From Gracilibacter sp. BRH_c7a (lineage in GTDB: Bacteria; Bacillota; Desulfitobacteriia; Desulfitobacteriales; Syntrophobotulaceae), in assembly GCA_001516055.1 (NCBI GenBank), contig LOEZ01000074.1, positions 1 to 40,838 on the forward strand: a DNA stretch of 40,838 nucleotides. Reading direction: 5' to 3'. The position numbers and the translations under genes are program-made. Below are positions 6,328 through 37,739 of this stretch, one piece after another (the first letter of the stretch is position 1; each line of letters opens with the position of its first letter). The notes below the pieces were generated by a model. The model was not told the origin of the DNA. It saw nothing but the letters and a program-made list of their open reading frames with translations, and did not search any database.

Positions 6328-7653
6328 ATGCTTCGCTTCGCAGGCTTACTCTTAGGAATGTTTGCCATTGGTGTAATGCAGCTCATCCTAGCTACCGCCC
6401 TCCCCTTCATCGTCACTGAAATAGGAGGTAGCAACTTATATGGCTGGGTTTTCTCAAGTTACATGCTGGCATCACTTGCTACAATCCCTTTGTTTTCTAA
6501 ACTGGCCGATATCTATGGAAAAAGAAGATTCTATATTCTTGGCATAAGTATATTTGCCTTAGGAAGCTTATATGGAGGACTTGCTCCCGATATGACTCAC
6601 TTGATTACCGCAAGGGTGTTTCAAGGTTTGGGAGCAGGGATTATTACCCCCGTTGCTATGTCCATGGTTGGCGAAATGTTCCCGGCCGAAAAAAGAGGAA
6701 ATATGATAGGAGTTTTTGCTTTCGTTCAGCTTCTGGCAAACCTTCTCAGCCCACCCTTAGGCAGTATAATTACCAAGCAGTTGGGATGGTATTGGATATT
6801 CTTTCTCAACTTGGGATTGGTAGTTATCTCAGCACTATTGGTTGTCTTAGGAGGTAAACCTCAAGAAATCAAGTCCTCAATGAAACCGTCCGAGATAGAT
6901 ATTGCTGGTGGTCTGATCTTTGGCGGCTTCTGTGTACTGGCTGTAAGTTTCTCCAACATTGTAAGCAAGCAAAGCTATTGGGATATATCAGGGTTGTTGT
7001 TTCTCGTGGCCGTCATCATTACTGCAATCGCCCTCGTAATTATTGAGAAACGCCACAAGAATCCCGTCATTAAAATCGCGTTCCTTAAAAACAACATTAT
7101 TAGAAGCTCTATCATCAGTTCAATTCTGGCTGGTGCGATTATGTATGGACTCGTTACCGTCCTCCCTTTGTATGGGCTTATCCTTAGCCAACAGGGTTAT
7201 AATCTTGATGAAAGTAAGATTCTTCTTCTATTCATGGTTGGTATCACGGCAGGTCTTCTAACTGGCAGTCGAATTGTTGGTAAGGTTAAATTTAGACATT
7301 TACCAAGGTATCTCTGGATTGTGATATTATCAAGCTCGATTCTTATGATGTACTCCGTCAATATAGGGAATCTGGTGGTATTTAGTTTATTTAATATAAT
7401 TATAGGATTATGTACCGGTGGGATTATGGCAACCTTCCTCATTAATTCTCAGAATGCCATCAGTAACGAAGATCGAACCGTGCTTAGTGGTCTTATCCAA
7501 CTAGGCAGATACTTCGGTGCGTCTATTGGGGTTACCTTATTTGCGGGCATGTTACCCGAGGTTAGTCTAATCAACGAACTAGGGGAGTTCATGGGAGCTT
7601 TTGGGTTACTTATTGCTTTATGTGTAATCGGATTGATAAATGAAATAATGTGA
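6328..7653 (+). CDS. MFS multidrug-type exporter (DHA2-like)
   Basis: A 441-residue protein with 12 or more hydrophobic helices. It has the MFS loop motif A (KLADIYGKRRFY), the drug/H+ antiporter motif C region (VAMSMVGEMFPAEKRG nearby) and a GLGAGIITPVAM stretch. A GTG at 6319 is possible, but the ATG at 6328 has AGGCGGTG at good spacing and is preferred. It follows the Rph-like gene by about 12 bp, so the two are co-transcribed. Expected role: proton-driven export of a toxic compound from the inner membrane, complementing modification by the upstream enzyme. Confidence 0.88.
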   Translation: MLRFAGLLLGMFAIGVMQLILATALPFIVTEIGGSNLYGWVFSSYMLASLATIPLFSKLADIYGKRRFYILGISIFALGSLYGGLAPDMTHLITARVFQGLGAGIITPVAMSMVGEMFPAEKRGNMIGVFAFVQLLANLLSPPLGSIITKQLGWYWIFFLNLGLVVISALLVVLGGKPQEIKSSMKPSEIDIAGGLIFGGFCVLAVSFSNIVSKQSYWDISGLLFLVAVIITAIALVIIEKRHKNPVIKIAFLKNNIIRSSIISSILAGAIMYGLVTVLPLYGLILSQQGYNLDESKILLLFMVGITAGLLTGSRIVGKVKFRHLPRYLWIVILSSSILMMYSVNIGNLVVFSLFNIIIGLCTGGIMATFLINSQNAISNEDRTVLSGLIQLGRYFGASIGVTLFAGMLPEVSLINELGEFMGAFGLLIALCVIGLINEIM

Positions 7654-7663
7654 GTAAGTATAA

Positions 7664-8050
7664 TTACGGTTTTAATACTTCATCCCATCTTGTCAACTCT
7701 TCATGGTTTCCACCAACATCTTTAATTATTATGTGTTCAAACTTAAGCAGCTTTTCTCTGGTTTTTTTTGCCATGTTTAGTGCGTCCTTATTTTTCGAGG
7801 TAGATGTTCCTCTTACCATCTCATACAATGCACCATCATTTACAATAATAACTATCTCTTTATCCATATAATTTTCTAATTCCGTCAAGAGTGTCATTAA
7901 TGCGACTTGTCCTACTATTGCTGGTTTCTTGTATTCCATCATGATAGATTTTTTGGATAATAGCTCATTATCCTCAAAGATTGAATATCTAACTTCTATG
8001 CTCTCCCCCTCATATAGGGATGGGATCCCTGCTAAATAAGCTTTAATCAT
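7664..8050 (-). CDS. Small unknown protein with RNase H-like pattern
   Basis: A 128-residue protein. I use the ATG at 8050 because GGAGGTATACTA precedes it; the frame extends further upstream without an RBS. The pattern is strands and helices ending in KEIVIIVNDGALYEMVRG and IIIKDVGGNHEELTRWDEVLK. This resembles the fourth strand/helix and C-terminal helix of RNase H-fold 'reverse-transcriptase-like' proteins, but the usual catalytic acidic residues are not evident. It lies 40 bp downstream of the metallophosphoesterase gene on the same strand, and converges on the MFS gene. Function unknown. Confidence 0.6.
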   Translation of the reverse strand: MIKAYLAGIPSLYEGESIEVRYSIFEDNELLSKKSIMMEYKKPAIVGQVALMTLLTELENYMDKEIVIIVNDGALYEMVRGTSTSKNKDALNMAKKTREKLLKFEHIIIKDVGGNHEELTRWDEVLKP

Positions 8051-20207: not shown

Positions 20208-20315
20208 TTTCTCCCCCCTTTCTCAAAAAAATAAAAGCCCATAGTCATTTTTTGCTTAAGCTAAGCTTAGGCGGAAAAATTGACCATGAACTTTACCTTT
20301 GTGTCATGTCATAAG

Positions 20316-20472
20316 TCTACAGGCAGGTCTCCTGACTCAGATTCCTCACCCCCGGCACCTTCCCAGTCTCCCAGTGGTTTTGCCGGTGGCTCCTCCTTAC
20401 AGTGGTGGGTCCGTCCGGGATTTACACCCGATTCCCTATTCTCCATTGATTCTCCAATGGCACCTGTAAACT
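20316..20472 (-). promoter_or_regulatory. Cobalamin riboswitch
   Basis: Read on the minus strand, the landmarks come in the right order: an outer stem start ACAGGTGCC; AGGGAAT-GGTG-AAATCCC; CCACTGTAA; the B12-box CCACTGGGAGACTGGGAAGG (20377-20358); and a closing TCAGGAGACCTGCCTGT. The aptamer ends about 110 bp before the cblS start. That expression platform contains the palindrome GCTTAAGC and a TTTTATTTTTTT run, which fits a terminator. High B12 should switch off the salvage/ECF operon. Confidence 0.93.
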
Positions 20473-20528
20473 ATTACCTTATGGATTTACAATTATTTTA
20501 TCTTGAAATAGATTAACTGACAAGGGGA

Positions 20529-27802: not shown

Positions 27803-28042
27803 CTTACTGAAGGAAAACCTTCCAAAGCTGCTATTATTGCTACTTCTAACAAGCTGATTCGTATGACTTATGGGATTCTTACTTCTGGAAACACCTATTC
27901 TTTAAGTCAATAATTCTCTTTTACTTAGAGCATTCCTTTAATTATTATTCTTTTTTAAAAGTCTATTATGTAGGCTTAATTTGTTGTACTCTTTTCCGAG
28001 ACGTATATATTCTTAGAAGGTTTTTCTTGACAGGGATTAGCT
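27803..28042 (+). mobile_element. IS110 remnant (3' end only)
   Basis: The first part encodes LTEGKPSKAAIIATSNKLIR, matching the end of the intact transposase at 30062-31276. It then follows the intact element's right end almost base for base to CTTGACAGGGATTAGCTG. Everything upstream of the last ~35 codons is missing. Some mismatches show it is older than, or diverged from, the complete copy. Confidence 0.9.
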
Positions 28043-28062
28043 GGTTTCTACGACGTATCGTG

Positions 28063-29653: not shown

Positions 29654-29738
29654 TGCTACCACCCTTAATTCGAATAATCTGTTAGAAATTACTATTCTAG
29701 TTTAACACATCTGAAAGATTTCTTTGACCTAGTGGTTC

Positions 29739-29812
29739 AGATAACGTCTCGCGAATTTGCGAAGTCTGGTTATTACATTCATATTTTCTCAGATTTAGCA
29801 AATTCGCTGTTC
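29739..29812. repeat. attC-like inverted repeat A, left part of the IS110 target
   Basis: AGATAACG (29739) is followed by GCGAATTTGC (29751-29760), and the other arm GCAAATTCGC is at 29798-29807. The stem extends inward by AA/TT and TCTG/CAGA. The arm ends at GCTGTTC (29806-29812), which recurs at 31403-31409. The IS110 element therefore splits this repeat from its right half. Confidence 0.6.
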
Positions 29813-29820
29813 GTATTATT

Positions 29821-29856
29821 AGTTCATACCAGTTCAATCTGAGTATGAACTTTTTT
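29821..29856 (+). terminator. Rho-independent terminator near the IS110 left end
   Basis: AGTTCATAC (29821-29829) and GTATGAACT (29843-29851) form a perfect 9-bp stem followed by TTTTTT. It would block transcription entering the element from the left. Confidence 0.75.
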
Positions 29857-29884
29857 GCTATATATATGCCTTATACTTAAGAAA

Positions 29885-30050
29885 AAACCGGGGTTTAGAA
29901 CGTATTCGCTGTTGGGACTTGAGATCCCGTCGTTTAAACTGTTCAGCCCTCTTTGGCACTTTACTCTGATTGAGCTGGTTGGGCCCCCAGCCCGTATCAC
30001 AATGCGAACCTAGGGATGGTCGTCAATTTGAGGGAACCCAGGAAATAAGA
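29885..30050 (+). ncRNA. Predicted IS110 bridge RNA
   Basis: The non-coding stretch before the transposase shows two stem-loop blocks. Block 1: GTTTAGAACG (29893-29902) pairs with CGTTTAAAC (29931-29939). Its interior holds ATTCGCTGTT (29904-29913), identical to the left target flank 29802-29811, and ACTTGA (29917-29922), complementary to the right flank TCAAGT (31408-31413). Block 2: ATTGAGCTG (29969-29977) is close to the right element end ATTAGCTG. Hairpin GGTTGGG/CCCAGCC follows, and ATGCGAAC (30002-30009) can pair with the left-end GTTCGTAT. This is the order of target and donor guides known for IS621-type bridge RNAs. The exact RNA ends are guesses. Confidence 0.6.
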
Positions 30051-30061
30051 GGAGGCTTTCT

Positions 30062-31276
30062 ATGAACAATGTTCCTGTCTTAAGTATTGATATTTCTAAG
30101 TCAAAGAGTTATGCTGCCCTATTCAGATCCTATGGTGATCCATATTTAAAACCATTTCCTTTTAACCATTGTCCCTCAGATCTCAGTTACCTAAGTTCTC
30201 AATTAAAGAATATTGAGAGAGATACTGGTAAGAAACCGAGTGTTGTGATGGAAGCCACGGGGAATTATTCCAAACCGATTGCTTCTTTCTTCCGAGAAAA
30301 TGGCTATCTGGTCTATATTATTAATCCCTTGCAGACTCACGCTCAAAAGAAAAAGTCTGTACGTAAGGTTAAGACTGACCCGATTGATGCCAATAGGATT
30401 GCTCAGGTATTTTATCTTGATAAGTTTTGTGCAGATCATTCTTTTGAACCGCATATTCAGGAATTGAAAAGTCTTTGCCGGCAATATGACGGTTTTAATG
30501 ATCTCTACGTAGAAACCCAGAATCGGCTGAGATCTGTCCTTGACCTATACTTTCCTCTTTGTGAAACGGTGTTTGCTCATCTTCGCGGCAAGACTGCTCT
30601 TCGTGTTCTTGCTTTGTTTCCGTCTCCTGCTGATGTTCTATCTGCCAGTCATGATGAACTTTTTGAGGCTCTTAAGCCTTCTAAAAAGTCCGTAAGTTGG
30701 TGTGAATCAAAAATCGATCTGTTGATTTTAGCTGCCAAGGAGAGTTTGCCTTTGAACCAGGCCCAAGCTTCCAATGTCCGGATTTTAAGGAACTATATTG
30801 AGCTCCTTTTATCCCAGCAGAATATCTTGGCTGATTTACGGGCTCAGATGGTTTACTGGGCAAACTTTTCTCCTTATTACTCTCTCCTGTGCTCTATTCC
30901 AGGAGTCGGTGAGATGACAGCTACCACCATTCTCGCGGAGATTGGCGATATTGAAAGATTTCCTGGTCCAAAACAGCTGGTAGCTTTCGCAGGTCTGGAT
31001 CCATCTGTTTTTCAATCAGGAAACTTCAAAGCGAGCAAAAACAGGATATCTAAACGGGGTTCTAGTTATTTCCGTAAGGCTCTATACCAGGCTACAGTTG
31101 CAGGAATTAGTAATCTACCGGGCGGTCCACGCAATAAAATCCTTTATGAGTTCTACTCGAAAAAATTGGCGGAAGGTAAACCCACAAAAACCGCAATTAT
31201 TGCCAGTTGTAACAAACTTATCCGAATGATTTATGGGATTCTTACTTCTGGAAACCCCTATTCTTTAAGTCACTAA
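30062..31276 (+). CDS. IS110-family transposase/recombinase
   Basis: A 404-residue protein. The N-terminal RuvC-like DEDD domain has SIDISKS, a VVMEATGNYSKP segment and VKTDPIDANRIA. The C-terminal Transposase_20 part has IPGVGEMTATTILAEIGD and then FAGLDPSVFQSG...SKRGSSYFRKAL, with the conserved serine region. It acts as an RNA-guided recombinase in characterised relatives. It appears full length with no frameshift, and GAGGAGGCTTTCT precedes the ATG, so it may be active. Confidence 0.96.
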   Translation: MNNVPVLSIDISKSKSYAALFRSYGDPYLKPFPFNHCPSDLSYLSSQLKNIERDTGKKPSVVMEATGNYSKPIASFFRENGYLVYIINPLQTHAQKKKSVRKVKTDPIDANRIAQVFYLDKFCADHSFEPHIQELKSLCRQYDGFNDLYVETQNRLRSVLDLYFPLCETVFAHLRGKTALRVLALFPSPADVLSASHDELFEALKPSKKSVSWCESKIDLLILAAKESLPLNQAQASNVRILRNYIELLLSQQNILADLRAQMVYWANFSPYYSLLCSIPGVGEMTATTILAEIGDIERFPGPKQLVAFAGLDPSVFQSGNFKASKNRISKRGSSYFRKALYQATVAGISNLPGGPRNKILYEFYSKKLAEGKPTKTAIIASCNKLIRMIYGILTSGNPYSLSH

Positions 31277-31422
31277 TTCTCTTTTACTTAGAGCATTCCT
31301 TTAATTATTATTCTTTTTCAAAAAGTCTATTATGTAGGCTTAATTTGTTGTACTCTTTTCCGAGCTATATATGTTTTAGAAAGTTTTTCTTGACAGGGAT
31401 TAGCTGTTCAAGTGGAGTTGGT

Positions 31423-34377: not shown

Positions 34378-34558
34378 TAAGATTACTAAAATATGGTTAT
34401 TTTATTCTTTATCCAATTTTACATTTCCTTTTAAGGCAAAGATGAAAATATATCATTTTGTTTCATAGTACCCTAACCTTCTGTTATTAACAACATCCGT
34501 CTTAAAAATAAGGTATTTTTTACTACTTTGATGGCATTTATTCTTCCATATATCTATT

Positions 34559-34587
34559 CGTAAGGTTAAGACTGATCCGATTGATGC
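34559..34587 (+). mobile_element. 29-bp IS110 transposase fragment
   Basis: CGTAAGGTTAAGACTGATCC and the following bases match 30361-30389 with one mismatch. This is the part encoding RKVKTDPIDA. It lies in the 34376-34624 stretch, where no gene is seen. Confidence 0.7.
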
Positions 34588-37655: not shown

Positions 37656-37727
37656 AATAACGTTTGGAGTTCCCGTAGCGTCACAACCACATGCATCTAT
37701 ACTAAGTTACGGGAACTCTGTGTTATG
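37656..37727. repeat. attC-like inverted repeat B
   Basis: AATAACG (37656), arm GAGTTCCCGTA (37667-37677), a 30-base loop, arm TACGGGAACTC (37708-37718, perfect 11 bp), then TGT and GTTATG (37722-37727). The complementary ATAAC/GTTAT ends and inner stem are laid out like an integron attC site. Confidence 0.6.
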
Positions 37728-37739
37728 TAAAGTCGCGCG

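What the first reader, a model, noticed from the sequence alone, without database searches (positions are those of the whole stretch)
29802..31413. IS110 bridge RNA whose four guide segments can be read against the target and the element ends
In the non-coding region before the transposase, ATTCGCTGTT (29904-29913) repeats exactly the left target junction (29802-29811), including the presumed CT core. ACTTGA (29917-29922) is complementary to the right flank (31408-31413). Further on, ATTGAGCTG (29969-29977) is near the right end ATTAGCTG (31399-31406), and ATGCGAAC (30002-30009) can pair with left-end GTTCGTAT (one G-T). The order (left target, right target, hairpin, left donor, right donor) is that of IS621-type bridge RNAs. 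The 10-base match is well beyond chance in this short stretch; the shorter ones alone would not be convincing.
Basis: partly seen in the sequence, partly recalled or inferred. Interest (0 to 1): 0.85.

Follow-up and report, generated by a model that had tools for sequence, protein, structure and literature searches.

The report
RNA-guided insertion sequence targeting integron attC sites
This is an IS110-family jumping gene that carries its own guide RNA, and across more than a dozen copies the guide matches the sites it has landed in, which are the joining sites (attC) of integron gene cassettes; the mechanism is a known kind, but this target for this branch of the family and the clear natural series of retargeted guides are informative.

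Summary
The left target guide (29904-29913) is correct: across 20 guide/site pairs from this genome, four relatives and eleven Bacillales plasmids it matches its own site far better than exchanged sites (permutation p about 1e-5), and better than unoccupied attC sites of the same genomes. Two details are wrong. The core is TT (29810-29811, 31407-31408), not CT. The right target guide is the 3' strand of the internal loop (GTCGTTT-AA-AC, 29929-29939); the proposed ACTTGA lies in the apical hairpin loop, occurs in relatives at unrelated sites, and shows no covariation (p 0.33). The excised circle would carry a junction promoter, TTGACA-N17-TATTAT. The window copy is atypical (right end 2 bases short, poor right-guide match). 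It is a new member of a known kind: RNA-guided attC targeting was known for the IS1111 group, not, to my knowledge, for an IS621-type element.

The parts
29738..29811 (-). attC site of an integron gene cassette (R' GTTATCTG to R'' AAC when read on the - strand) in which the IS sits
   Evidence: inverted repeat 29751-29768/29790-29807; same structure at 26 or more places in this genome and in relatives
29802..29809 (+). left target (LT), ATTCGCTG
   Evidence: identical to guide 29904-29911
29810..29811 (+). left copy of the core dinucleotide TT (AA of the attC R'' box on the - strand)
   Evidence: comparison of filled and empty attC sites
29812..30061 (+). left end (LE), non-coding, 250 bp
   Evidence: homology with the other copies starts at the junction
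31390..31395 (+). -35 box TTGACA at the right end; with 29814-29819 it forms a promoter in the circle (spacer 17 in relatives, 15 in this copy)
   Evidence: sequence in the copies; function inferred
29814..29819 (+). -10 box TATTAT of the junction promoter
   Evidence: function inferred
29821..29856 (+). terminator-like hairpin AGTTCATAC/GTATGAACT plus T6; the predicted junction start site (about 29826) lies inside its 5' arm
   Evidence: sequence, conserved in relatives; function inferred
29888..30042 (+). bridge RNA, closed by helix 29888-29895/30035-30042
   Evidence: MFE and consensus fold; covariance model R1 finds it in 5 genomes
29898..29944 (+). target-binding loop: stem 29898-29902/29940-29944, apical hairpin 29913-29917/29925-29929
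29904..29913 (+). left target guide (LTG) ATTCGCTGTT, core TT at 29912-29913
   Evidence: no covariation with right flanks; same loop at unrelated sites
29929..29939 (+). right target guide (RTG) GTCGTTT, core-pairing AA (29936-29937), handshake A C (29938-29939)
   Evidence: position in the fold; covariation with right targets p 1.2e-4
29973..29980 (+). left donor guide (LDG) AGCTGGTT; matches RE AGCTGGTT of relatives and of the remnant ending at 28043
30001..30009 (+). right donor guide (RDG) AATGCG-AA with handshake C; pairs with TT-CGTATT of the left end (one G-T)
30062..31276 (+). IS110 family RNA-guided transposase, 404 aa, D10 E64 D106 D109 and S319
   Evidence: Pfam, NCBIfam NF033542 232 bits, cut-off 140, alignment with IS621 8wt6, residues
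31277..31406 (+). right end (RE) ending ATTAGCTG; relatives end ATTAGCTGGT
31407..31408 (+). right copy of the core TT
31409..31415 (+). right target CAAGTGG, 2 of 7 Watson-Crick pairs with the RTG (3 with G-T)
27809..28043 (+). right-end remnant of a second related IS, with the canonical right end ATTAGCTGGT-TT-CTACGACG

Best explanation
The element at 29812-31406 is an IS110-group insertion sequence of IS621 architecture. Its left end encodes a bridge RNA (about 29888-30042) programmed to integron attC sites. The excised circle joins RE ...AGCTGGT, core TT and LE CGTATTAT, which creates a sigma-70 promoter that transcribes bridge RNA and transposase. The target loop pairs with both strands of an attC site at the invariant GTT/AAC triplet of its R'' box: LTG with the left side plus core, RTG with the right side. 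The donor loop pairs with the RE-TT-LE junction, and the DEDD/Ser recombinase exchanges strands at TT, placing the IS antisense to the cassettes. Different lineages carry differently programmed target loops for different attC variants, while donor loop and ends stay constant. Shown here: fold, guide/target covariation, attC location, constant position and orientation. Inferred: expression, circle formation, catalysis and handshake pairing.
For: Transposase: IS110 families in Pfam and NCBIfam, full catalytic set, homology to IS621 and ISCro4 structures. Fold: stem, LTG strand, apical hairpin, RTG strand, second donor module. LTG: p 3e-4 over nine attC-clade guide types; 17 occupied sites mean identity 8.8 of 10 against 6.8 for unoccupied attC of the same genomes, none of 100,000 draws as high; 20 pairs including Bacillales p 5e-6. 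RTG: p 1.2e-4. Target identity: attC arrays with many same-strand sites, R'/R'' complementarity between neighbouring sites, an ORF in nearly every interval, 45 of 58 opposite to the IS. Core TT: nearly all unoccupied sites read GTT followed by A, C or G and not T, against GGTTT at relatives' right junctions. As in IS621, LTG spans 9 positions and LDG 8, and the extra RTG bases A, C fit donor T7, G6 while the RDG base C fits target G7 (PMC11208158).
Against: No RNA or activity data exist. In the window copy the right guide matches the right flank poorly (2 to 3 of 7) and the right end lacks GT, which would shorten the junction promoter spacer from 17 to 15. One truncated copy (C53, 143132) carries guide AAGCCGTGTT but sits at ACACGCTGTT, 6 of 10. 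The fold energy of the window RNA is no lower than shuffles (z 0.61) and covariation inside the helices is slight. Permutations treat related copies as independent. No Rfam family matches.
Confidence: 0.93

Rival explanations
1. One reading: CT core, with ACTTGA in the hairpin loop as the right target guide.
For: ACTTGA is exactly complementary to 31408-31413, a 6-base match with about 0.2 percent chance per copy; CT occurs at both ends of this copy.
Against: Loop and right flank do not covary in 18 other copies (p 0.63 without the window). The same loop is found at unrelated right flanks. The left junctions of the C10, C68 and G031a,b copies read CCGTGTT and have no CT, and right junctions of relatives need TT to restore an attC site.
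Confidence: 0.04
2. The transposase recognises the folded or palindromic attC structure itself and the RNA match is a by-product of shared ancestry.
For: All attC-clade copies sit in palindromic sites at one position, and the Bacillales relatives also appear to sit beside TTATTCAACTAA...TTAGTTGAATAA palindromes.
Against: Guide variants track the site variant they occupy within one genome (GCCGTG against CGCTG), and the Bacillales elements with the same donor ends have different guides matching different sites. Structure alone predicts neither.
Confidence: 0.03
3. The window copy is a decaying remnant: guide and left flank still record a past insertion, but this element can no longer move. (Compatible with the main explanation; it concerns only this copy.)
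For: Right end lacks GT; junction spacer would be 15; poor RTG match.
Against: Transposase is intact with all catalytic residues and the left guide still matches exactly.
Confidence: 0.35

Closest known systems
IS621 and its bridge RNA (IS110 group; PMC11208160, PMC11208158)
   Same: LE-encoded RNA of about 155-177 nt, two internal-loop modules, guide order and strand logic, LTG 9 and LDG 8 positions, handshake bases, junction promoter, DEDD plus Ser transposase
   Different: core TT instead of CT; target is attC instead of REP; no predicted separate 5' stem-loop, a long-range closing helix instead; transposase 404 aa with weak overall similarity (99.5 bits)
IS1111-attC group (ISKpn4, ISPst6, ISPa25; Tetu and Holmes 2008, Post and Hall 2009, seekRNA paper PMC11187229)
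   Same: RNA-guided DEDD insertion sequences that insert at one fixed end of attC sites
   Different: those carry the RNA downstream of the gene, have subterminal inverted repeats and the reverse guide order; this element has the RNA upstream and IS110 order
IS110 elements of Bacillales plasmids (Peribacillus, Cytobacillus, Niallia and others)
   Same: same donor ends CGTATTATA and ATTAGCTGG, homologous bridge RNA
   Different: about 40 percent identical transposase; target guides match other sites (for example ACGCACCCG-TT), not attC

Membership tests
IS110 family, IS110 group | DEDD transposase with C-terminal Transposase_20 domain and catalytic Ser | tested here: met
   D10 E64 D106 D109 S319; NF033542 232 bits over cut-off 140
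IS110 family, IS110 group | long non-coding region upstream of the gene (LE longer than RE) | tested here: met
   LE 250 bp, RE 130 bp
IS621-type bridge RNA | two internal-loop modules with LTG/RTG then LDG/RDG | tested here: met
   target module clear, donor module partly paired in the predicted fold
IS621-type bridge RNA | guide/target covariation across orthologues | tested here: met
IS621-type bridge RNA | CT core | tested here: not met
   core is TT; TT cores worked at lower efficiency in IS621 (PMC11208160), so this is a variation rather than a family criterion
IS621-type bridge RNA | RNA expressed and bound by the transposase | not testable with these tools
   needs RNA-seq and a binding assay
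IS1111 group | RNA region downstream of the gene | tested here: not met
   RNA model hits lie upstream of the gene; subterminal inverted repeats were not tested separately
integron attC site (the target) | imperfect palindrome with R'' AAC and R' GTT, arrayed between cassettes, R' complementary to the next R'' | tested here: met
complete integron with canonical IntI | IntI with its extra patch next to the array | tested here: not met
   no TIGR02249 hit over cut-off in five genomes; profile positions about 180-233 are skipped

The most novel reading that the evidence does not exclude
IS621-type bridge RNAs have diversified into a lineage that parasitises integron cassette arrays of Bacillota of the order that includes Desulfosporosinus. 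Because insertion at AA of the R'' box rebuilds an AAC triplet from the left end (ATACG-AA-C), the attC site may stay recombination-competent, so the element travels inside the cassette it invaded. The arrays themselves may be served by a tyrosine recombinase that lacks the IntI patch.
Probability: 0.3. Interest if true: 0.72.

Novelty: new member of a known kind. Interest (0 to 1): 0.5.

Why it matters
It gives a natural series of retargeted bridge RNAs (nine guide types on attC, about nine more in Bacillales) with constant donor halves, which lets guide, core and handshake rules be read from sequence alone and tested. It adds an IS110-group partner with a TT core, and suggests that RNA-guided attC targeting arose in the IS110 as well as the IS1111 group. 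It also documents large cassette arrays in Bacillota, where integrons are reported to be rare (PMC9024848).

Tried and rejected
CT core: rejected from filled and empty site comparison. ACTTGA as right guide: rejected by relatives. Rfam search for a bridge RNA family: nothing at E up to 1. Energy z-score of the window fold: uninformative (0.61). Viral contigs: no relative. Genome-contig scan gave only one truncated relative (Desulfosporosinus nitroreducens), whose left end is missing. First idea that the integrases in the arrays were all integron integrases: the 283-289 aa ones belong to IS91-type elements. The attC orientation first assumed was reversed after cassette ORF directions were counted.

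Full report
OBSERVATION. Homology with other copies in the same genome runs to the junctions. The transposase is 30062-31276, 404 aa, with Pfam DEDD_Tnp_IS110 and Transposase_20, NCBIfam 'IS110 family RNA-guided transposase' 232 bits over a cut-off of 140, sequence similarity to the solved IS621 and ISCro4 recombinases, and all catalytic residues: D10, E64, D106, D109, S319.

COPIES. The same genome holds a full copy at 77 percent identity (C10), a 5' copy (C68) and several end fragments (C53, C22, C17, C74). Relatives at 66-68 percent transposase identity occur in G031 (4 copies), G042 (5 copies, plus 2 found later by their ends) and G028. A covariance model of the RNA adds one copy in G046 and finds the RNA in five of 83 genomes searched in the class. 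Eleven more distant elements (37-40 percent) were read from Bacillales plasmids.

TARGET. The left flanks of the copies form imperfect palindromes that recur at 26 or more places in this genome. They are integron attC sites: AAC...GTT boxes, a long stem between them, several sites on one strand spaced 0.5-1.5 kb, the R' box of one site complementary to the R'' box of the next (for example GTTCTCTGA then TCAGAGAAC), and an ORF in nearly every interval. In 45 of 58 intervals the longest ORF runs opposite to the IS; several of the other 13 are the IS transposase itself. The true attC orientation is therefore the reverse of the IS, and the insertion point is the AA of the R'' AAC box. Every attC-clade copy with a readable left junction (18 in five genomes) abuts the same GTT triplet in the same orientation.

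CORE. Unoccupied sites read GTT followed by A, C or G in nearly all cases. Right junctions of relatives read ATTAGCTGGT-TT-[A/C]: GGTTTCTACGACG where the empty site is GTTCTACGACG. The shared dinucleotide that restores an empty site is TT. In the window copy the right end is ATTAGCTG-TT, two bases short; the right-end remnant ending at 28043 in the same window has the canonical form.

RNA. The minimum-energy fold of 29880-30045 and the eight-sequence consensus give a closing helix and a target module made of stem GAACG:UGUUC, 5' loop strand UAUUCGCUGU, apical hairpin UGGGA/UCCCG and 3' loop strand UCGUUUAAAC. In IS621 the guides are the two loop strands (PMC11208158). By this topology the right target guide is GTCGTTT followed by AA (core) and A, C. 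These last two bases can pair with donor T7 and G6, and the RDG base after its AA, C, can pair with target G7: the handshake positions of IS621. LTG covers 9 positions through the second core T, LDG (AGCTGGTT) 8 through the first, the same asymmetry as IS621. Shown: the sequences. Inferred: the pairing.

TESTS. Left guide against left target: nine guide types, own pairs 8.7 of 10 against 7.5 for exchanged pairs, p 3e-4. Seventeen occupied sites match their guide at 8.8 of 10 against 6.8 for random unoccupied attC of the same genome, with none of 100,000 draws as high. With the Bacillales elements the longest run is 7.3 against 4.0, p 5e-6, and p 1e-5 when exchanged only within clades. Right guide against right target: p 1.2e-4. 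Apical loop against right target: p 0.33, and 0.63 without the window. These tests do not correct for relatedness beyond the within-clade exchange. One truncated copy does not match (C53 at 143132, 6 of 10).

EXPRESSION, INFERRED. The circle of the relatives would read TTGACA-17-TATTAT across the junction. The predicted start site falls inside the 5' arm of a terminator-like hairpin (29821-29851 plus T6), so read-through from the flank would be stopped but junction transcripts would not. In this copy the spacer would be 15.

PLACE AMONG KNOWN SYSTEMS. The element works like IS621 and meets the tested features of that type except the CT core. attC targeting by RNA-guided elements is known for ISKpn4 and ISPst6 of the IS1111 group (PMC11187229), which have the opposite guide order and a downstream RNA. 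I found no paper in the held library that reports an IS110-group element on attC, but the library is incomplete, and the primary IS1111-attC papers were not held. Integrons are described as very rare in Firmicutes, with one complete integron and a few CALINs (PMC9024848).

VERDICT. The finding is real and the central claim (guide equals target) holds with strong comparative support. The core and right guide need correction, and the biological target is the integron attC site.

Noticed in passing
L103 (G028) 6960-7900; G042 C1:2317292-2318101; G000 C58:661-1473 (-): Tyrosine recombinases (326-368 aa where intact; the G028 frame is broken) near the start of the cassette arrays. In G028 it is in the same orientation as the cassettes and followed by an attI-like GTTAGACGACA. 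The G042 protein matches NF040815 'site-specific tyrosine recombinase/integron integrase' over its cut-off but misses the IntI patch. Possible integron integrase without the patch.
   Followed up: partly
L091 12.9-15.7 kb, L100 1.8-4.1 kb, L104 (- strand, from 7.8 kb down): IS91-type elements with a 283-289 aa tyrosine recombinase plus a zinc-ribbon transposase lie in or at the start of the arrays; their downstream end (for example L091 15553-15643) is itself attC-like (CAACG...GACGTTATATG).
   Followed up: partly
window 27809-28043: Right-end remnant of a second related IS110, 89 percent identical, 1.8 kb upstream, with the canonical right end and an attC-type flank.
   Followed up: yes
window 37659-37728: Second attC-like site in the window with no IS.
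   Followed up: no
window 29821-29856: Terminator-like hairpin right after the left junction, conserved in the copies; the predicted junction start site lies within its 5' arm.
   Followed up: partly
L106 8135 (G000 C53:143132): Truncated copy whose guide (AAGCCGTGTT) does not match its own site (ACACGCTGTT); a neighbouring truncated copy (C53:140813) with the same guide matches its site 10 of 10.
   Followed up: no
L126-L136 (Bacillales plasmids): Homologous bridge RNAs with the same donor ends but target guides for sites next to TTATTCAACTAA...TTAGTTGAATAA palindromes.
   Followed up: partly
window 20305-20482 (-): Cobalamin riboswitch, 115 bits.
   Followed up: no
window 34553-34587: 35-base stretch 91 percent identical to part of the transposase gene.
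   Followed up: no
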